From IMG/VR virus record IMGVR_UViG_3300027969_000001, positions 1-64,000 of that record: a stretch of 64,000 nucleotides of DNA. The stretch is one strand, 5' to 3'. Positions 10,749 through 20,809 of the stretch are shown here, piece after piece. Each line of letters begins with the position of its first letter. The stretch's first letter is position 1. Source of the DNA: a virus. The notes beneath the pieces were generated by a model. It saw only the letters and a program-made list of their open reading frames with translations, searched no databases and was not told the DNA's origin. Both the position numbers and the translations under genes were made by a program.

Positions 10749-10901
10749 TTATTTATTATTACGTTCTTTAGAGTCTTGAAAGATTTTTTTTGCCGTGTCT
10801 ATATCTCTATTTAGGTGATGATTGGCAAACTGTTCCAAAATAGCTAACTCTATGAGGTCTTTTTCGTTATAAATAGTTGTATTGATTATTTTTTCGGCCA
10901 T
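10749..10901 (-). CDS. Small helical protein closing the halogenase operon
   Basis: A 50-residue charged helical protein (EKDLIELAILEQFANHHLNRD). It overlaps the 3' end of the upstream gene by 16 bp in another frame, the same compact style as the rest of this operon. Unknown function. Confidence 0.55.
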   Translation of the reverse strand: MAEKIINTTIYNEKDLIELAILEQFANHHLNRDIDTAKKIFQDSKERNNK

Positions 10902-11650
10902 CTTATTTTCTTTTCTTTTTCAATAGCCTTATCTACCCTGGTCCGCTCTCTCCTATAAGGGGCGGCAGTTCCGTCATGTGGCGCTATGTGCCCCATGCCA
11001 AAACCGGTTGTTGCAACATATTTGAAATACGACTCATCATTAAAGACAATTTCTGAAAAATCAGAATCACGTTTAAAAGGTACCAATTGAGCAATTGGCG
11101 TTCCGACCTTGATTGCAAAAGCCGCATCTCCAGTTATGTTAAGAACGATGTTAGCAAGATGATAATAGTCAGTATTTACTATTGCTGGAATAACGGTAAA
11201 GTTAGCATTGGGCTCCCAATGTAACGGCAACACAAGTGTCGACCATCCCGGAGCTGTTTCAAATCGCCATGGATTTACAAGTTTTGGATATTGTCCAGTC
11301 TCGATGTCTCTCATGTCTGTCATGGGGCAAGAGCCAGTTGATTCATAAGAAAAACCCTGAACACTGCTTATGCCTGCAGGAGGGCTAAAGTCGTCTCCAC
11401 CAGTTTCCCATGCTCCATGACCATCAGGCCTGAATCTATAGTTTGTCCAAAGTGGAAGCGTTACGCCAGCAGCAAGATAATCAATAGTTCCAGCACAACG
11501 CCGAAGCGAGCCTTGATGTTTCCCTATTCGCCTAAACCACGAAGGTTGATTAATAATCTCATTAATAAATGGGGCAAACTCCATCAATCTATTATCGGTC
11601 GGCGTAAATCTAATTTGTCCAGGTTTTACTGCAGGGAGTTTGTGACTCAT
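10886..11650 (-). CDS. Conserved hypothetical protein next to the halogenase (DUF6065-like, tentative)
   Basis: A 254-residue soluble protein with a beta-rich centre (TAPGWSTLVLPLHWEPN, FTVIPAIVNTDYY) and a PIAQLVPF segment. This reminded me of dUTPase/dCTP-deaminase-like beta folds and of the DUF6065 proteins seen near flavin halogenases, but I cannot confirm either. The ATG overlaps the halogenase stop (ATGA). Association with the halogenase suggests a substrate or partner role. Confidence 0.55.
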   Translation of the reverse strand: MSHKLPAVKPGQIRFTPTDNRLMEFAPFINEIINQPSWFRRIGKHQGSLRRCAGTIDYLAAGVTLPLWTNYRFRPDGHGAWETGGDDFSPPAGISSVQGFSYESTGSCPMTDMRDIETGQYPKLVNPWRFETAPGWSTLVLPLHWEPNANFTVIPAIVNTDYYHLANIVLNITGDAAFAIKVGTPIAQLVPFKRDSDFSEIVFNDESYFKYVATTGFGMGHIAPHDGTAAPYRRERTRVDKAIEKEKKIRWPKK

Positions 11651-13191
11651 TTATACAACCATTCTTCGTCTGTGGATGTTAATTCTCTAAGAGCAGTTGC
11701 ATGGTCAACCAATTCATGATTGTGACGATTCTGTCTCATCTTGTCAATTTCGTAAAAAATTGCTTCGCGCAAAACCATCATGTTCATGGCTCTAGTGCAT
11801 GCGTCTTTGCTAATTAATCCCTGCCCTTGAGCCACGTGAGCTATGTGTGGTGTTTGAAAAAGCTCACCAGAACTGTTTTCAAAGTCATAGCGCGATGGTG
11901 GGCGCTCAGACCATAGTTCTATCAATTCTTGCAATTCGTCGTTTACTGGCATGTTAGACATTGCTTCCCAAAAAGGAGAGTCTTTTCTATCTGTGTGATA
12001 GTGCAGACGAATCATAGTGAGAATGTTTCGCATCATCTTTTCAAAACCTTTATTAAAATGCTTTTGCGAAGCAGTATGTCCAGGAGCGTATGACGCTATA
12101 TAGGATATGGCTTGACGGACTTGTTGAATAGTTGAACCAATACTTGTAGCTTCAAGCGGTTCAACAAAAGAAGAAGCAAGACCTATGGCCATACAGTTCT
12201 TTACCCATACATTTTTTAAATAGCCAGCATCAAAGGAAATGACCCGAGGGTTGTCAATCTTATAGCCACTCATTTTTTCAGCTTCGATAACGGCATCTTC
12301 TGCAGATATGAAATCAGAAGAAAATACATAACCGTTACCACGGCGTTCCTGTGTTGGAATTTCCCACATCCAGCCAGAAGATGCTGCTCGCGCTCTGGTG
12401 TATGGGCGGATTCGACCATTTGGGTCGCTTTCGGTTGGAAAAGCAATAGCAGTATTGCTAAGTAGATACTTATTAAAAGACACCCATTCGTCGTTGCCTA
12501 GTTTATTCATTAGCACCCTAGAAAATCCGGAAGCGTCAAACCAAAACGAGGCCGATACTTCGTCTCCTTGAGATGTTGTTATCGTATTGATATTTCCTGT
12601 TTCGGAATCAAGAATTACTTCGGCCACTTCTCCGTCAACAAACTTAATATTGCGGCTAAATGCTAACGACGTAAAAAATTCATTCAATTTAAAAGTGTCA
12701 AAATGAAATTGATTAGTACTCTTATGCAACCCAGCACGGGGTATTTTATCTTTGACTATTCCGACACTGGATGTATTAGGCGTAAATAATCTGTCTTGTT
12801 CAAGAAGGCCCATATAAACACCAAATAGACCAAAAGCAAAAATGTCATCTACGGCACCAACGCTATGAAAATAGTCAGTATTTTTTGTATGCCAATTTTC
12901 GTAACGAATACCGTATTTGTGTGTAGCTGATGTAGCTATGAGCAGGTCGTCAAGTGGTATCTCACACATGTCCATAAATTGACGCCAATGTTCAGTAGAG
13001 CCTTCACCTACACCAATGATGCCTATCTTTGAAGATGATATGACCGTTACGTCGGACAAGGGAAATGCACGCCTCGCCAAAATAGCAGCAATCAATCCAG
13101 CGGTTCCGGAACCAACAATTGCAATGGGTTCTGGTTTTTGAGATACCGTCCGAAGGTTAATTAAATCTTGGTTAGTTACCATGTCTGACAT
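11647..13191 (-). CDS. Flavin-dependent tryptophan-halogenase homologue
   Basis: A 514-residue protein. An FAD-binding GxGxxG lies at 27-32 (VGSGTAGLIAA), followed by GVGEGST. The catalytic lysine equivalent is K92 in ATHKYGIRYENW. The family signature W-x-W-x-I-P is at 274-279 (GWMWEIP). A PLEATSIG segment corresponds to PLESTGI. The enzyme class uses reduced FAD, O2 and halide to make hypohalous acid that reaches the catalytic Lys. Phage homologues include cyanophage VirX1, an iodinating enzyme. FADH2 must come from a host flavin reductase. It overlaps the upstream gene by 20 bp. Substrate unknown; a virion protein or free indole are both possible. Confidence 0.9.
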   Translation of the reverse strand: MSDMVTNQDLINLRTVSQKPEPIAIVGSGTAGLIAAILARRAFPLSDVTVISSSKIGIIGVGEGSTEHWRQFMDMCEIPLDDLLIATSATHKYGIRYENWHTKNTDYFHSVGAVDDIFAFGLFGVYMGLLEQDRLFTPNTSSVGIVKDKIPRAGLHKSTNQFHFDTFKLNEFFTSLAFSRNIKFVDGEVAEVILDSETGNINTITTSQGDEVSASFWFDASGFSRVLMNKLGNDEWVSFNKYLLSNTAIAFPTESDPNGRIRPYTRARAASSGWMWEIPTQERRGNGYVFSSDFISAEDAVIEAEKMSGYKIDNPRVISFDAGYLKNVWVKNCMAIGLASSFVEPLEATSIGSTIQQVRQAISYIASYAPGHTASQKHFNKGFEKMMRNILTMIRLHYHTDRKDSPFWEAMSNMPVNDELQELIELWSERPPSRYDFENSSGELFQTPHIAHVAQGQGLISKDACTRAMNMMVLREAIFYEIDKMRQNRHNHELVDHATALRELTSTDEEWLYK

Positions 13192-13879
13192 ATACAGTAA
13201 ACGCTATCTGTGTTGGGATGTGGAAAGAAGTAAATAGACCTGAGTTAATAATTTGTTGATGAACCAAATAAGCACCAGTCTCGTCTCCATTTTCATAAAG
13301 ATTGCCAAGGTCTGATGCGTTTGAAACAACCAAAACACCATCAGTGCTTATCGAATTAATAACTGCTTCCAAAAGGTGGTCATTAAAACCAAGAGACTGA
13401 CAGTAGACAAGAGCCATATCTTGTGTCCCAGCAAGGGAATCAATATCTGCATAGTCAACTGTAGTGAAGTTGTCAAACAAAGAAGTGTTTGAGTATTTAC
13501 ATACGCTCTGAGTAATGATTGTATTTAGCACTGTTACTTCGTCAACATACGGAGCTATTCTGGTTAAGCTTTCAAGAGCACCAATAACAAGCATATTTTG
13601 CGGCCGGCGCATCCTCACTAGTGCTTCTACGATGTCAACGCAGGCAGCAATTAGGTTTCTGAATTCTGCTTTATCATCTGAGCCTAAAATAAATGAATGG
13701 AACTCATCTACAAAAATAACGCGCTCCAACGGAATCCCAGACGCATCATAAACTTCACGCATTTTTACATAAATTTCTTTCAGTTCATTATCTGAAAGAG
13801 CCGGTGTTAAGTCAGTTTCTGCCCTACTGTGCATTGACCTGGCAATACGAGCCATTTCCTCAATAGTAAAATTAGGCAT
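13172..13879 (-). CDS. Probable Rossmann-fold (methyltransferase-like) protein
   Basis: A 235-residue protein. The start is set at MPNFTIEEMARI because its ATG overlaps the upstream stop by 8 bp; a longer form would overlap further. The order NMLVIGALESLTRIAP / EVTVLNT / FTTVDYADI / DMALVYCQSL / DGVLVVSNASDLG resembles a class I SAM-dependent fold, but the usual GxGxG loop is replaced by GALES, so cofactor binding is doubtful. It sits between the oxygenase and the halogenase. Confidence 0.5.
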   Translation of the reverse strand: MPNFTIEEMARIARSMHSRAETDLTPALSDNELKEIYVKMREVYDASGIPLERVIFVDEFHSFILGSDDKAEFRNLIAACVDIVEALVRMRRPQNMLVIGALESLTRIAPYVDEVTVLNTIITQSVCKYSNTSLFDNFTTVDYADIDSLAGTQDMALVYCQSLGFNDHLLEAVINSISTDGVLVVSNASDLGNLYENGDETGAYLVHQQIINSGLFTSFHIPTQIAFTVYVRHGN

Positions 13880-14108
13880 TTGTTGCACTTTCAATCTGCG
13901 GAGCCAAAAACTTGGCAAAGTAAAGATGACGCAATTCTCCGTAAGCCCTATTATATTCAGCAGGGCTAAGGTTTGACTTTAAACCATTTTTGACTGTTTT
14001 ATAGTTTTCTTCATTGACCGTCATGTCCGCAACGCCAGCAAGAGCGCAAATACGAATTATTCTTGTTTCCACATACTGCATGTGGTCTTCTAGTGAGTAA
14101 CTAATCAT
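13872..14108 (-). CDS. Small helical protein of the halogenase operon
   Basis: A 78-residue helical protein (EDHMQYVETRIIRICALAG, SPAEYNRAYGELRHLYFAKFL). ATG chosen where it overlaps the previous stop by 8 bp. No known family. Confidence 0.55.
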   Translation of the reverse strand: MISYSLEDHMQYVETRIIRICALAGVADMTVNEENYKTVKNGLKSNLSPAEYNRAYGELRHLYFAKFLAPQIESATNA

Positions 14109-14358
14109 CTTCTTCTTCCTGTTTGAATGACGGCATTGGTGTTGACATAAAAACGCACCTAAACTTATCACCTTCGGAGTCAATTACTGCGTGTTGTGTA
14201 AGGTCATATTTTTTGGCAACCCATTCCATTTCGTCATGGTCACTACCTTCTTCATCTTGGTAGTTTTGCTCTTCGCGTTCGGCAACCCCCCAGGGGCGGC
14301 CATTACCACTATGACCCATTGTTTTGAATTGATGAACAAAATAGCCAAATATGCTCAT
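14101..14358 (-). CDS. Small acidic protein of the halogenase operon
   Basis: An 85-residue protein starting MSIFGYFVHQFK, its ATG overlapping the oxygenase stop (ATGA). It has a Gly-rich turn (GHSGNGRPWG), an acidic middle and an EEEDD tail. Unknown; perhaps a partner of an operon enzyme. Confidence 0.5.
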   Translation of the reverse strand: MSIFGYFVHQFKTMGHSGNGRPWGVAEREEQNYQDEEGSDHDEMEWVAKKYDLTQHAVIDSEGDKFRCVFMSTPMPSFKQEEEDD

Positions 14359-14936
14359 CTGAACCACGTCACTAACGAGTATTTGGTACCACTAACAACT
14401 GGATGAGCAATGTGCAGATAAGGAAAATTGCTAGGGAACATAATTACTGTGCCTGCTTCACATTCGACAGTCGTGTCAAACATTGGAAACTCAAGACTTC
14501 CTCCTGATTCAGGAGATACAAGGTTTGCAACCATACTAAAGACACGAGCGTTGTCTCTAAAGTGGTCATAATGCCCATGATACTCAGCTTCGGGCAAGTA
14601 CTTAAGAACCGAATATGGCTCAAATATAGCATTGGCTATTAAATATTCTTTTCTGTAGTCTTCAGAAACTTCAGAAATTTGGTCACGAATAGTTCTATTA
14701 AAAAACTTAGAAAGGTCTGTTTCCGGGTATGGCTTCATAAGTGGAACCAAAGAGCATGACAAAGAAGTGCGGTATTGAGTTACGGTTCCTTGTCCGACGC
14801 CCGAAGAACCCCACCCGAGTTCTGACCATTCGTTTTCTATTTCTTCATTAAGCATATTAATAAAAGCTTGCGCCATATCTGGCTCAAAAGCATCTCTATA
14901 AACAGATATGCAGGTTGCTGGTTTTTCTATTTTCAT
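14355..14936 (-). CDS. 2-oxoglutarate/Fe(II) dioxygenase, prolyl-4-hydroxylase-like
   Basis: A 193-residue double-stranded beta-helix oxygenase. The iron triad is visible: H122 and D124 in YHGHYDHF and a distal His near 175 in PYLHIAHPV, with K185 (GTKYSLVTWF) in the place that binds the 2OG carboxylate. The layout fits the P4Hc group, which hydroxylates proline or other side chains using O2 and 2OG. Enzymes of this group are common in cyanophages. Here the same leftward operon encodes, just upstream, an adhesin full of Gly-Ser-Pro triplets with Pro in the Y position, a plausible substrate (inference). Confidence 0.85.
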   Translation of the reverse strand: MKIEKPATCISVYRDAFEPDMAQAFINMLNEEIENEWSELGWGSSGVGQGTVTQYRTSLSCSLVPLMKPYPETDLSKFFNRTIRDQISEVSEDYRKEYLIANAIFEPYSVLKYLPEAEYHGHYDHFRDNARVFSMVANLVSPESGGSLEFPMFDTTVECEAGTVIMFPSNFPYLHIAHPVVSGTKYSLVTWFR

Positions 14937-15355
14937 ACAACCTCAAAAGAAGAAACTAAAAATTTTTCATTATTATTAAAGACAATAACTTCATATTTGC
15001 CCACTTCGTCAAAACGTGTTCTAAATTTGGCAACATGGCGTTCCAGCATTGATGGTTTGTGCTGCTCTTTTTTGCCCATAGGAGATACGGTTTCCATAAT
15101 AATATCTTTCCCCATTTCAACAAATTCATTTGTTATGTCTACAGAAAATATGTGACCGGACTTTACTATGCCATCCATATTCGATGAAGCAACCTCTGGA
15201 ATGGAGATTATACAAACAGAGTCTTTATTTATTCCATCACCAACTAAACCTGTCCTGATTGACAGTTGAGCATCTTTTGCTAGTTTTTTTGCCTCTTCAG
15301 GGATTTCTAAATCATTTCCTATCAGGAAATGCGGAACATAAACAAAACGTTTCAT
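14933..15355 (-). CDS. Hypothetical protein, 140 aa
   Basis: A soluble alpha/beta protein (MKRFVYVPHFLIG, KDSVCIISIPEVA, KYEVIVFNNNEKFLV). Overlaps both neighbours by 4 bp. No recognisable family; part of the adhesin-modification operon. Confidence 0.55.
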   Translation of the reverse strand: MKRFVYVPHFLIGNDLEIPEEAKKLAKDAQLSIRTGLVGDGINKDSVCIISIPEVASSNMDGIVKSGHIFSVDITNEFVEMGKDIIMETVSPMGKKEQHKPSMLERHVAKFRTRFDEVGKYEVIVFNNNEKFLVSSFEVV

Positions 15356-15588
15356 TGAAGCTCATCTAGCTTGCTTTCAATAAGTTCCAAAGCGGAAACA
15401 AGACCTTTGACTCTGCCGTATTCGCCGGCAAATACACCATCATGGGATACGGGTAGTTCGTCAACTGACGCAAACGTATCAGGGTCTATCCCAATGCGAA
15501 TCAAAATATTATAAATCTCAGTAGTAATTCCAGCTTTTGAATTACGAAGAGCCATCTCTTTTTGTTGGTTATTAAGGCCAAGGTCCAT
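15352..15588 (-). CDS. Hypothetical helical protein, 78 aa
   Basis: A helical protein (LNNQQKEMALRNSKAGI, VKGLVSALELIESKLDEL) directly after the His-rich adhesin, 8 bp from its stop, with RBS AGGAG. The KEMALRNSKAGITTEIYNI stretch reads like a tail assembly chaperone, but this is not certain. Confidence 0.55.
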   Translation of the reverse strand: MDLGLNNQQKEMALRNSKAGITTEIYNILIRIGIDPDTFASVDELPVSHDGVFAGEYGRVKGLVSALELIESKLDELQ

Positions 15589-15596
15589 TTTTTCTC

Positions 15597-17501
15597 CTAA
15601 ACGTTTAGCAAGACGTATGCACTACCGGATGATGCTGAATAGTTATCAGCGTCAGCCGTAAGTCCTGCTCTTGTGTCGTATGTAATCGTATCAGCTATTG
15701 AGTCTGTAAGCAAGAGTATTGAGCCGCCGCCTCCAGCCCCTCCACGCTTGCCAGTAGAACCAGTCGCTCCAGTTCCGCCAGCGCCACCTGCGCCACCTGC
15801 CCCTCCTGTGCCACCTGCTCCACCAGAACCGCCTGCTCCACCAGAACCGCCTGCTCCACGTAATTGACCCAACCCACCAGCACCGCCTGCATAATGACTT
15901 GGGTGAACATGGTAAGTATGAGGAGCAACATGGTGGTGATGCCATGTTGGAGAAGTGGTTGGGTGATGGGCATGAGTGTGGCTATGGTGAGGCAAGCCAA
16001 AGTGAGCATGAACGTGACCGTCGTGCCCACCAAAAGAACCGTGATAAACCCCCGAGTGATGATAACCGCTTCCGTCTCCATGACTATGTCCACCATGTCC
16101 GTTTGGTTTTTGATGATAGTGAGGGAATGGATATCCATGACTTAATTGGAAATAAGCATGCCACCAATGACCATCCCAGTGATGCGCTCCTCCATGTGGA
16201 CCGTCATTGTGAGGATGGTGATAATGCCCATCATGATGATGGTGCGGGGTTGCGTGAGTGTAGTGATGCCCTTTTGAATGAGCACCAGTATGTGCTCGCG
16301 TGGAGTGGGCATGCCTATCTGAATGGTTATTATAATGATGATGATGCGAATAGTTTCTAGCATCAGGGTTTGGATGTGAGCCGTCCGGGTTGGGGTGAGT
16401 AAGGCTGGGAGCGGCAGCTCCATCTGGACCAAAGCTGGAACCAGTTGGATGAGTGCCAGGACTACCTGGAGAACCATGACCACCAGGGGTGCCAGAGGCT
16501 CCAGGGGTGCCAGAGGCTCCAGTAGTACCAGGAGAACCAGTTGCTCCCGGGCTGCCAGCAGAACCGGCAGAACCAGACATGCCGAGGGACACAAACTTTC
16601 CTGAACCTGATATTTTTTTAGCAATTACACAAACAATTCCACCGCCCATGCCGCTAGTTCCGCCAGCACCGCCAGTACCGCCAGCACCAGGTGAACCACT
16701 TGCACCACGACTTCCACTTGCACCAGATACGCCAACAGAGCCAGGACTTCCACTTGCACCAGGACTTCCACTTGCACCAGATACGCCAACAGAGCCAGGA
16801 CTTCCACTTGCACCAGGACTTCCACTTGCACCTTGTGAACCTGGGTTGCCTCGTCCACCAGGAGCATTAACCGTTGTTGCGTTTGGAGGATATGCACCAG
16901 TAGCACCAGCCGCACCAGGGGTTCCAGCCGCGCCAGGACTGCCGGTAGCACCAGGACTGCCACTTGCGCCAGGACTTCCAGTAGCACCAGGACTTCCTGT
17001 AGCGCCAGCTCCAGTAGCCCCCGAATCCCCAATGGAACCAGTTGTTCCCCTAGAGCCACCAGCCATAGGAAGAACTCCGAGCGTTGGGTCCATCATCATC
17101 CCGCCAGACATTGCATTAATGTCTTTATATAAGAACGACGGTAATGCCGTTACTCCAGGACTAGTTCCGCCTCCGCCTTGACCACCAGTTCTGTATGTTA
17201 TTGCGCCACTTGTGTGTCCCTTTAAGCTTGCGTTTGCGACTGCAGATGCGGGTTCACCAACAACTCCAGCAGATACGGAACCGATTCCGATATACCCATT
17301 GTTGGTCAATGTGTTTTTTACAAAAACCCTGTATCCATTTGTATTTAAAAATATGCCAGAGCTAATAGTCAGATTGTTGTAGTACATATCCGACGTAATT
17401 GTTGTATCTGATGTAATAGTTACGTCACCGTCAGCACCAGTTCCGTAAACGGCATCGTTTGCCGTACGGGAAACATTTGCTTCAATTCTTGATACTGCCA
17501 T
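15597..17501 (-). CDS. Collagen-like, histidine-rich, glycine-rich adhesin
   Basis: A 634-residue modular protein. Residues 1-75 form a beta domain shared with the next gene (DAVYGTGADGDVTIT...NGYRVFVK). Collagen-like triplets occur at about 150-280 and 310-352, many GSP or GTP with Pro in the Y position. Residues 384-536 contain about 52 His, mostly as HxH or HH. At 538-594 is a Gly-rich block (GGAGGSGGAGG) like the polyglycine II tips of T4 gp38-type adhesins. HxH motifs in the T4 gp37 needle hold iron ions, so a metal-stabilised tip is plausible. Downstream in the same operon are a prolyl-hydroxylase-like enzyme and a halogenase. Confidence 0.8.
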   Translation of the reverse strand: MAVSRIEANVSRTANDAVYGTGADGDVTITSDTTITSDMYYNNLTISSGIFLNTNGYRVFVKNTLTNNGYIGIGSVSAGVVGEPASAVANASLKGHTSGAITYRTGGQGGGGTSPGVTALPSFLYKDINAMSGGMMMDPTLGVLPMAGGSRGTTGSIGDSGATGAGATGSPGATGSPGASGSPGATGSPGAAGTPGAAGATGAYPPNATTVNAPGGRGNPGSQGASGSPGASGSPGSVGVSGASGSPGASGSPGSVGVSGASGSRGASGSPGAGGTGGAGGTSGMGGGIVCVIAKKISGSGKFVSLGMSGSAGSAGSPGATGSPGTTGASGTPGASGTPGGHGSPGSPGTHPTGSSFGPDGAAAPSLTHPNPDGSHPNPDARNYSHHHHYNNHSDRHAHSTRAHTGAHSKGHHYTHATPHHHHDGHYHHPHNDGPHGGAHHWDGHWWHAYFQLSHGYPFPHYHQKPNGHGGHSHGDGSGYHHSGVYHGSFGGHDGHVHAHFGLPHHSHTHAHHPTTSPTWHHHHVAPHTYHVHPSHYAGGAGGLGQLRGAGGSGGAGGSGGAGGTGGAGGAGGAGGTGATGSTGKRGGAGGGGSILLLTDSIADTITYDTRAGLTADADNYSASSGSAYVLLNV

Positions 17502-17503
17502 AT

Positions 17504-18267
17504 TTACACCTGTTGAATATAGTAGTAGGTTCCTGCGTTTTGTCCAGTTACGTCTGTTGATATCCCAGATGGCAAAGATGCGTTAGAGGAGACAATCAGA
17601 ATCACTCCGCCACCAGCAGGAGCAGTACCTGGCGCTTTTATGTAAGCCGTACCTGATGCTGGACCAGAAATATAACGAGCGGCAAGAATTACTACTCCGC
17701 CTCCCGCTTGACCAGAACCACCAGCACCACCGCGAAGAAAAGTAGGTCCGCCTGATGCGGTGATTGAGTATCCAGTAATTGCTTGAGTCGGAACCTTGAA
17801 GTAGTTACTTCCACCCATCGCCGCAGTCGGAGCTGTTGCTGTATACCCAGTAGCAGAACCACCTAAAGAATGAGTGACAGCAGTAGTGGCTGCTCCGCCT
17901 TGAGCAATAGAACCAGCAGTTGCATACCCAGTCGTGTAGCCAATCGTGGAGTTAGTTCCATCAAACTTAAGCATTCCTTTAACGAAAATCCTATAACCAT
18001 TTGGTTGAAGTCGACAACTTGTATTGATAGTCAAGTCATTGAAAAACATATCCGTAGTCATTGTGTAAACGCTTGCAGACGGAGCCATACCCAAGACTGT
18101 TGTAGTTCCGTCTAGGGTCGCATCACCATCTGCGCCAGTTCCGTAAACAGAGTCAACGCCTTCGTTGTAGTAGGCGTTCCATACAGAACCATCCCATTGC
18201 CAACTCTTAGAGCCGACAGTGTAAACCTGGTTTGTATATGGAGATGAAGGAAAAGTTATTGCAGGCA

Positions 18268-18268
<1 letters not shown>
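17504..18268 (-). CDS. Tail fibre/adhesin with FPSSP attachment module and Gly-rich tip
   Basis: A 254-residue protein. Residues 1-32 are the attachment module (FPSSP...SKSWQWDGSVWN). Residues 38-110 match the beta domain of the His-rich adhesin. The rest alternates Gly/Ala-rich loops (GGAGGSGQAGGGVVILAARYISG) with strands, as in polyglycine-tip adhesins. It has no collagen shaft. One base overlaps the upstream fibre stop. It looks like a shorter paralogue of its neighbour. Confidence 0.7.
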
Positions 18269-20456
<2,188 letters not shown>

Positions 20457-20458
20457 TT

Positions 20459-20809
20459 CTATTCTCCATCCGATGGAATATTGTCTGTCCTGACACCCCA
20501 TGGACTAGAGCCATTAGTCAAGTCCCAGTTATCCCAAGAGGCAGGGTATCCCGTGCGTGGAGGCAGAGGAAGTTGAAGAGTGTTTTCTAAAGGACGAGAA
20601 ACAGTAGAGGTTATGTCTCTCATTTCTTGCCTCCATACACGCCAGTCGTTTTTAATTTCCTCAGAAAGAGGGCAGTCTGGCATTTGTGTCCAATCTGATT
20701 CTTTTAGAAGAACATCACGCATTTCACGAAGTGCTTGAGCAAGTTCTTCTTGTGTTTGCGCATATGTACCAGTTGTTGAAAGTGTCCAACCATAAATTTG
20801 AATTAACAT
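20459..20809 (-). CDS. Tail fibre assembly chaperone-like protein
   Basis: A 116-residue protein with the hallmark LREMRDVLLKESDWTQMPDC followed by PLSEEIKNDWRVWRQEMRDI. This pattern (RD-x-LL-x-SDWTQ-x-PD-x-PL-x(n)-W-x-x-YRQ-x-LRD) defines small phage tail assembly chaperones. It lies between the collar protein and the largest fibre, whose folding it may assist. Confidence 0.8.
   Translation of the reverse strand: MLIQIYGWTLSTTGTYAQTQEELAQALREMRDVLLKESDWTQMPDCPLSEEIKNDWRVWRQEMRDITSTVSRPLENTLQLPLPPRTGYPASWDNWDLTNGSSPWGVRTDNIPSDGE

What the first reader, a model, noticed from the sequence alone, without database searches (positions are those of the whole stretch)
14355..17501. Prolyl-hydroxylase-like enzyme beside a collagen-like adhesin with Y-position prolines
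The adhesin at 15597 has many Gly-Ser-Pro and Gly-Thr-Pro triplets with Pro in the Y position, the site hydroxylated in collagen; other fibres here have Pro mainly at X. The oxygenase is in the same operon. A phage making its own hydroxyproline collagen would be new.
Basis: inference. Interest (0 to 1): 0.75.

Follow-up and report, generated by a model that had tools for sequence, protein, structure and literature searches.

The report
Phage cassette likely modifies its adhesin
An uncultured water phage carries, beside its glycine- and histidine-rich tail-tip protein, a prolyl-hydroxylase-like enzyme and a halogenase that almost always travel with that protein, which suggests (not yet proven) that phages chemically finish their own attachment proteins after making them.

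Summary
Adhesin 15597-17501(-) has 17 prolines at Y and none at X in its Gly-X-Y blocks, while the other Gly-X-Y fibres here have 55 at X and none at Y. The oxygenase 14355-14936(-) is a prolyl-4-hydroxylase relative with its known active-site residues intact. A cassette (adhesin, p78, p140, oxygenase, flavin-dependent halogenase, dUTPase-like p254) recurs in environmental phages. Of 52 halogenase loci with enough flank, 52 have the adhesin and 50 the oxygenase, despite rearrangement and, on two contigs, duplication. The specific claim, hydroxylated Y-prolines of a collagen helix, is only partly supported. Nine of 60 oxygenase-bearing adhesins have no Y-proline outside the His-rich segment. 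In two independent lineages that lost the canonical oxygenase, proline is depleted most clearly in the His-rich segment (1.3-4.2% against a median of 8.3%). Best reading: the hydroxylase modifies prolines of the adhesin, mainly in the His-rich segment, and the halogenase its aromatic or His residues. The characterised viral halogenase VirX1 also sits beside Gly/His-rich tip-like genes. No chemistry was tested.

The parts
14355..14936 (-). 2OG-Fe(II) oxygenase, prolyl-4-hydroxylase-like, 193 aa (Fe ligands H122, D124, H175; 2OG Lys K185; Y113, Y119, R131, W191)
   Evidence: PF13640 E 4.8e-11; PDB profile hits headed by prolyl 4-hydroxylases; AF2 pLDDT 92.1; Foldseek top hits 5c5t, 3gze
15597..17501 (-). 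Gly/His-rich tail-tip adhesin, 634 aa; G 24%, 57 His; presumed substrate
   Evidence: only Gly- and His-rich protein of the 158.7 kb record; role inferred from position at the end of the fibre module
15801..16493 (-). His-rich segment of the adhesin (aa ~337-567), 21 Pro; best-supported hydroxylation region
16449..17057 (-). Gly-X-Y blocks 1-4 of the adhesin (aa 149-166, 169-204, 215-289, 307-351) with all 17 Gly-X-Pro-Gly sites (Pro at aa 171-348); the end overlaps the start of the His-rich segment
15717..15857 (-). C-terminal Gly-rich blocks of the adhesin (aa 549-595), no Y-Pro
15352..15588 (-). p78, small cassette protein of unknown function
   Evidence: 50 of 52 halogenase loci with flank
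14933..15355 (-). p140, cassette protein of unknown function (possible accessory)
   Evidence: 44 of 52 loci; missing in L092 and L109 together with the canonical oxygenase; no clear PDB relative
13872..14183 (-). p103, optional cassette protein
   Evidence: present in a subset
13172..13918 (-). p248, optional cassette protein (start codon unsure)
   Evidence: present in a subset; no family or PDB match
11647..13191 (-). flavin-dependent (tryptophan-type) halogenase, 514 aa; GxGxxG 27-32, K92, WxWxIP 274-279, E347
   Evidence: PF04820 E 4.6e-102; residues kept in at least 95% of 40 non-redundant relatives; PDB relatives include VirX1 6qgm
10886..11650 (-). p254, dUTPase-like-fold protein; overlaps the halogenase stop by 4 bases
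   Evidence: 52 of 52 loci; weak dUTPase/DUF6065 relation
17504..18268 (-). 254 aa adhesin-related protein (N-terminal domain shared with the adhesin)
   Evidence: precedes the adhesin in most loci

Best explanation
This is a tail-tip adhesin maturation cassette. The phage makes a Gly/His-rich distal adhesin together with a peptidyl prolyl hydroxylase (Fe(II), O2, 2-oxoglutarate) and a flavin-dependent halogenase dedicated to it. The hydroxylase converts prolines of the adhesin, chiefly in the His-rich segment and perhaps also the X-Pro-Gly triplets, to hydroxyproline. The halogenase acts on His, Tyr or Trp side chains of the same segment. The result would be a stiffer, more stable or chemically altered receptor-binding tip. 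Shown here: the genes, intact active-site residues, linkage, and proline loss when the canonical oxygenase is missing. Inferred: that the enzymes act on the adhesin, which residues, and the benefit.
For: Oxygenase family profile against the PDB: B. anthracis P4H 2.6e-11, PBCV-1 P4H 1.3e-9, Cr-P4H-1 2.4e-7, human C-P4H alpha-2 5.7e-7. Foldseek of a pLDDT 92 model: PBCV-1 viral collagen prolyl hydroxylase first (E 9.9e-12), Cr-P4H-1 with (Ser-Pro)5 second (3.4e-11); the 50 matches listed are all prolyl hydroxylases. H122, D124, H175, Y113, Y119, R131 and W191 are invariant in A1 and K185 nearly so; Y119 aligns with Tyr140 of Cr-P4H, which contacts the hydroxylated proline (PMC9676403). Linkage: of 52 halogenase loci with flank, 52 have the adhesin family and p254 within 7 kb and 50 the oxygenase, including rearranged loci (L080-083, L099-104) and two contigs with two cassettes (L115, L118). 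Natural experiment: four adhesins in two lineages without the canonical oxygenase (two independent losses on the halogenase tree) have 1.3, 2.8, 4.2 and 3.4% Pro in the His-rich segment against a median of 8.3% (minimum 3.9%) in 60 with it; L338 was fetched after the prediction was made and fits. The His content of that segment is unchanged (18.4 vs 18.9%) and the halogenase is retained. Three homologues without the cassette have almost no His. Halogenase catalytic residues conserved. Gly/His-rich tip-like proteins also precede VirX1 in Syn10 and halogenases of S-RIM44, P-TIM40, S-SZBM1 and S-CREM1, with p254-like and/or 2OG oxygenase genes after them.
Against: No chemistry was tested. Oxygenase loss rests on two independent events; two of the four adhesins (L092, L109) keep a divergent oxygenase paralogue and the other two lie on 12.9 and 22.3 kb fragments. 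Y-position Pro is also lower there (one-sided p 0.03) and total Pro separates weakly from one oxygenase-bearing clade (3.5 vs 3.6%). Cys rises in the same segments, so other causes of composition change are possible. Trp is missing from the His-rich segment in 21 of 60, so free or peptidyl Trp may not be the halogenase target. Several cyanophage halogenases do not sit beside adhesins (P-SSM2, S-H38, S-PM2, Syn1, S-MbCM6, S-B64). 'Adhesin' is inferred from position and composition.
Confidence: 0.5

Rival explanations
1. One reading: the oxygenase is a collagen prolyl hydroxylase that hydroxylates the Y-position prolines of the Gly-X-Y blocks, which trimerise into a hydroxyproline-stabilised collagen helix.
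For: 17:0 Y:X bias here and 136:14 across the family, opposite to other fibres of the same loci. Y-Pro followed by Gly is the X-Pro-Gly site of collagen P4H. B. anthracis P4H hydroxylates (PPG)n, Y favoured (PMC8968730). Y-Pro is also lower in oxygenase-negative adhesins (one-sided p 0.03).
Against: Nine of 60 oxygenase-bearing adhesins have no Y-Pro outside the His-rich segment, two of them with 56-63 such triplets. Proline loss with the oxygenase is clearer in the His-rich segment. Blocks are short and interrupted, so a continuous helix is not evident.
Confidence: 0.15
2. The enzymes act elsewhere (host translation factor, host surface glycan or protein, small metabolite) and are linked to the adhesin only because the host-range module is exchanged as a block.
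For: Bacterial P4H relatives bind or modify EF-Tu (PDB titles 4iw3, 5v7y). Host-range loci are exchanged as modules (general knowledge). Papers on cyanophages treat halogenase and 2OG oxygenases as auxiliary metabolic genes.
Against: Linkage to one adhesin family in 52 of 52 loci despite rearrangement and duplication. Adhesin composition changes with oxygenase presence, which a bystander model does not predict.
Confidence: 0.25
3. The oxygenase hydroxylates another residue of the adhesin (His, Asn or Asp) rather than Pro.
For: 2OG oxygenases can hydroxylate such residues (general knowledge), and the His-rich segment is rich in His and Asn.
Against: Nearest relatives by sequence and fold are prolyl hydroxylases with Tyr119/Arg131/Trp191 kept. 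His stays and Asn rises when the oxygenase is lost, while Pro falls.
Confidence: 0.1

Closest known systems
PBCV-1 viral prolyl 4-hydroxylase (vCPH, 5c5t)
   Same: Best fold match; virus-encoded; P4H active site. Evidence for 4-hydroxyproline in viral proteins (Eriksson 1999, title cited in PMC9301287).
   Different: 20% identity; a eukaryotic algal virus; no halogenase partner or Gly/His-rich adhesin is part of that story.
Bacillus anthracis prolyl 4-hydroxylase (3itq, 5hv0)
   Same: Best sequence-profile match; active on (PPG)n in vitro (PMC8968730).
   Different: Cellular enzyme; an EF-Tu interaction is reported for it (5v7y title); not in an operon with an adhesin in what was read.
VirX1 of cyanophage Syn10 (6qgm) and related phage halogenases
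   Same: Same halogenase superfamily and motifs; its gene follows Gly/His-rich tip-like genes and precedes a second halogenase, a p254-like gene and 2OG-oxygenase-like genes.
   Different: Low identity to this halogenase (27% for the Syn10 match); native substrate not given in PMC8407142; the tip proteins are a different family.
T2/S16 gp38 tail-fibre adhesin (polyglycine-II sandwich, PMC12892980)
   Same: Gly-rich blocks with variable insertions in a distal fibre-tip protein.
   Different: No structural match found; gp38 has no His-rich segment or modifying enzymes.
Nereis jaw protein Nvjp-1 (PMC13120676)
   Same: Gly/His-rich, halogenated, metal-binding; shows what such chemistry can do.
   Different: Animal protein, no homology; analogy only, and halogenation here is inferred.

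Membership tests
Peptidyl prolyl 4-hydroxylase (2OG-Fe(II)) | Double-stranded beta-helix fold nearest to P4Hs | tested here: met
   AF2 pLDDT 92.1; Foldseek top 5c5t, 3gze, 4iw3, 7zsc
Peptidyl prolyl 4-hydroxylase (2OG-Fe(II)) | HxD...H iron site and Lys for 2OG | tested here: met
   H122, D124, H175 invariant, K185 nearly invariant in 32 relatives
Peptidyl prolyl 4-hydroxylase (2OG-Fe(II)) | Substrate-contact Tyr (Tyr140 of Cr-P4H) and associated Arg/Trp | tested here: met
   Y119, R131, W191 invariant; Tyr and Arg aligned to Cr-P4H-1; Tyr140 role in PMC9676403; Trp role from general knowledge
Peptidyl prolyl 4-hydroxylase (2OG-Fe(II)) | Hydroxylates peptidyl proline | not testable with these tools
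   needs assay and mass spectrometry
Collagen-like triple-helical protein | Long Gly-X-Y repeat | tested here: inconclusive
   PF01391 53 bits, but six blocks of 5-25 triplets
Collagen-like triple-helical protein | Trimeric triple helix with Y-hydroxyproline | not testable with these tools
   AF2 monomer below pLDDT 50 over most of the blocks
Flavin-dependent halogenase | GxGxxG, catalytic Lys, WxWxIP, Glu | tested here: met
   27-32, K92, 274-279, E347; PF04820 E 4.6e-102
Flavin-dependent halogenase | Halogenates an aromatic substrate | not testable with these tools
   needs assay
gp38 polyglycine-II adhesin | PGII sandwich fold | tested here: inconclusive
   no PDB match, but the model is mostly low confidence

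The most novel reading that the evidence does not exclude
Phages carry dedicated two-enzyme systems, a prolyl hydroxylase plus a flavin halogenase, that chemically mature Gly/His-rich tail-tip adhesins. This would also give the native role of VirX1 and other tail-locus viral halogenases, and of part of the abundant viral P4H genes.
Probability: 0.4. Interest if true: 0.87.

Novelty: new variant of a known kind. Interest (0 to 1): 0.7.

Why it matters
Prolyl 4-hydroxylase is an abundant viral gene whose use 'remains cryptic' (PMC9301287), and the reviews and genome papers read here give no native substrate for cyanophage halogenases. The cassette names one candidate substrate for both enzymes and makes the question testable by ordinary mass spectrometry. 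If true, post-translational hydroxylation and halogenation of receptor-binding proteins would be a widespread feature of aquatic phages.

Tried and rejected
tblastn of the adhesin against phage records found nothing (low-complexity filter). AF2 of the adhesin was low confidence and matched no PDB fold. p78, p103 and p248 had no family hit or were not placed, and p140 and p248 had no convincing PDB relative. A bacterial host was not found: genome contigs gave three MAG contigs that may be viral. Trp as the obligatory halogenase target was rejected because it is absent from the His-rich segment in 21 of 60. HxH enrichment is weak (1.22x), so a T4-gp37-like iron needle is not supported by that measure. 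'All viral halogenases sit by adhesins' was rejected. The P4H-EF-Tu reading was kept only as a rival.
Full report
1. Observation. The window is bases 1-64000 of a 158,714-base virus record with tail-sheath and portal genes. ORF 15597-17501(-) encodes 634 aa with 73 Gly-X-Y triplets; Pro is at Y 17 times and never at X, the reverse of the three other Gly-X-Y fibres here (X 55, Y 0). Across 42 non-redundant relatives the bias is 136 Y to 14 X, against 89 Y to 1378 X in other Gly-X-Y ORFs of the same loci. It is more than chance, although the sequences are related. Bacterial collagens in general have Pro at X and Thr at Y (PMC8968730).

2. The oxygenase. ORF 14355-14936(-) matches PF13640. A profile of 32 relatives finds prolyl 4-hydroxylases first in the PDB: B. 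anthracis, PBCV-1, Chlamydomonas, and human collagen P4H alpha-2. The AlphaFold model (pLDDT 92.1) matches the PBCV-1 'viral collagen prolyl hydroxylase' best and Cr-P4H-1 with (Ser-Pro)5 second. Iron ligands H122, D124 and H175, and Y113, Y119, R131 and W191 are invariant; K185 is nearly so. Y119 aligns with Tyr140 of Cr-P4H, which contacts the proline being hydroxylated (PMC9676403).

3. The cassette. Loci fetched by the oxygenase, the adhesin and the halogenase show one recurring set: p17504, Gly/His-rich adhesin, p78, p140, oxygenase, (p103, p248), flavin-dependent halogenase, p254. Of 80 loci fetched by the halogenase alone, 52 have at least 5 kb upstream and 2.5 kb downstream: 52 carry the adhesin and p254, 50 the oxygenase. 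Linkage survives changes of order and strand (L080-083, L099-104), and two contigs carry two cassettes, each with its own adhesin, oxygenase and halogenase (L115, L118). The halogenase keeps all catalytic motifs in 40 relatives. p254 is a distant dUTPase-fold protein. In this genome the adhesin is the only Gly- and His-rich protein.

4. What does the oxygenase act on? If it serves the adhesin, adhesin composition should change when it is lost. Of 63 non-redundant adhesins, 57 have oxygenase and halogenase, 3 the halogenase without the canonical oxygenase, and 3 neither. The three oxygenase-negative ones (L092, L109, L270) have the three lowest proline contents of the 60 halogenase-bearing ones and represent two independent losses on the halogenase tree. 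The depletion is clear in the His-rich segment (ranks 0, 0, 1 of 57, p 0.004) and not significant at Y positions (p 0.15) or elsewhere (p 0.19). A further oxygenase-negative locus, L338, fetched after this prediction, has 3.4%. A clade with the oxygenase (L345, L346) has long Gly-X-Y blocks with no Y-Pro at all but 6.8-7.7% Pro in the His-rich segment. Updated totals, 60 against 4: His-rich segment median 8.3% against 1.3, 2.8, 4.2 and 3.4% (one-sided p 5e-4); Y positions p 0.03; nine oxygenase-bearing adhesins have no Y-Pro outside the His-rich segment. These p-values ignore relatedness, and several partitions of the protein were tried. L092 and L109 keep a divergent paralogue, and L270 and L338 lie on fragments.

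5. Reading. The data favour an adhesin-directed prolyl hydroxylase whose main target is the His-rich segment, with the Gly-X-Pro-Gly triplets as possible additional sites. The halogenase is as tightly linked. His-rich segments occur in cassette adhesins and not in the three homologues without it, and Trp is absent from the segment in 21 of 60, so His or Tyr is the more general candidate. Gly/His-rich, halogenated and metal-hardened Nereis jaw proteins show that such chemistry is useful elsewhere (PMC13120676); that is analogy only.

6. Beyond this family. In cultured cyanophages, VirX1 of Syn10 (structure 6qgm) follows two Gly/His-rich tip-like genes and precedes a second halogenase, a p254-like gene and 2OG-oxygenase-like genes. 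S-RIM44, P-TIM40, S-SZBM1 and S-CREM1 are similar in having Gly/His-rich proteins just before the halogenase. S-SRM01 has its halogenase beside a Gly/Trp-rich 'adhesin tip complex' gene, and the actinophage DSL-LC01 near collagen-like genes. Other cyanophage halogenases lie elsewhere, so not all do this. The papers read propose antibiotic protection, metabolite modification, DNA repair or nitrogen sensing for these genes and call viral P4H use 'cryptic'; none found proposes adhesin modification, within the open-licence library searched.

7. Limits. No hydroxylation or halogenation was measured. The adhesin role is inferred from position and composition. Two independent losses are few. The adhesin structure is not predicted well enough to decide between a triple helix and a polyglycine-type packing. 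The host is unknown.

Noticed in passing
L127:6830-15056 (Syn10, HQ634191.1): VirX1 lies directly after two Gly/His-rich tip-like proteins (with one small gene between) and before a second halogenase, a p254-like protein and 2OG-oxygenase-like genes; suggests a native substrate for VirX1.
   Followed up: partly
L115 and L118 (contigs 3300042291_001557, 3300042545_001591): Two cassettes in one phage, each with its own adhesin, oxygenase and halogenase.
   Followed up: partly
L092:6754-8616, L109:7100-8647, L270:963-2258: Adhesins without the canonical oxygenase have more Cys in the His-rich segment (3.9% against 0.4%); the L092 adhesin also carries extra sequence before its C-terminus.
   Followed up: partly
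L139:10636-20115 (S-CREM1): A halogenase next to a Gly/His-rich 'collagen-like' protein is followed by eight annotated 2OG-Fe(II) oxygenases and a JmjC protein.
   Followed up: no
L140:7938-13407 (actinophage DSL-LC01): A distantly related halogenase lies near two collagen-like proteins in another phage lineage.
   Followed up: no
L114:6316-7959 and L119:6320-7948: Adhesins whose His-rich segment is largely a GHNPHVAGNPHPA-type repeat, a good peptide substrate to test.
   Followed up: no
window 19536-20501: 321 aa protein of the fibre module with 6% His; may be a collar/short-fibre-like protein (not tested against family libraries).
   Followed up: no
L025, L110, L113, L117, L119, L122: Divergent cassettes carry a second, longer 2OG oxygenase of a related family; among all oxygenase sequences Phe replaces Trp191 in 15 of 54, apparently in this second group.
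   Followed up: no
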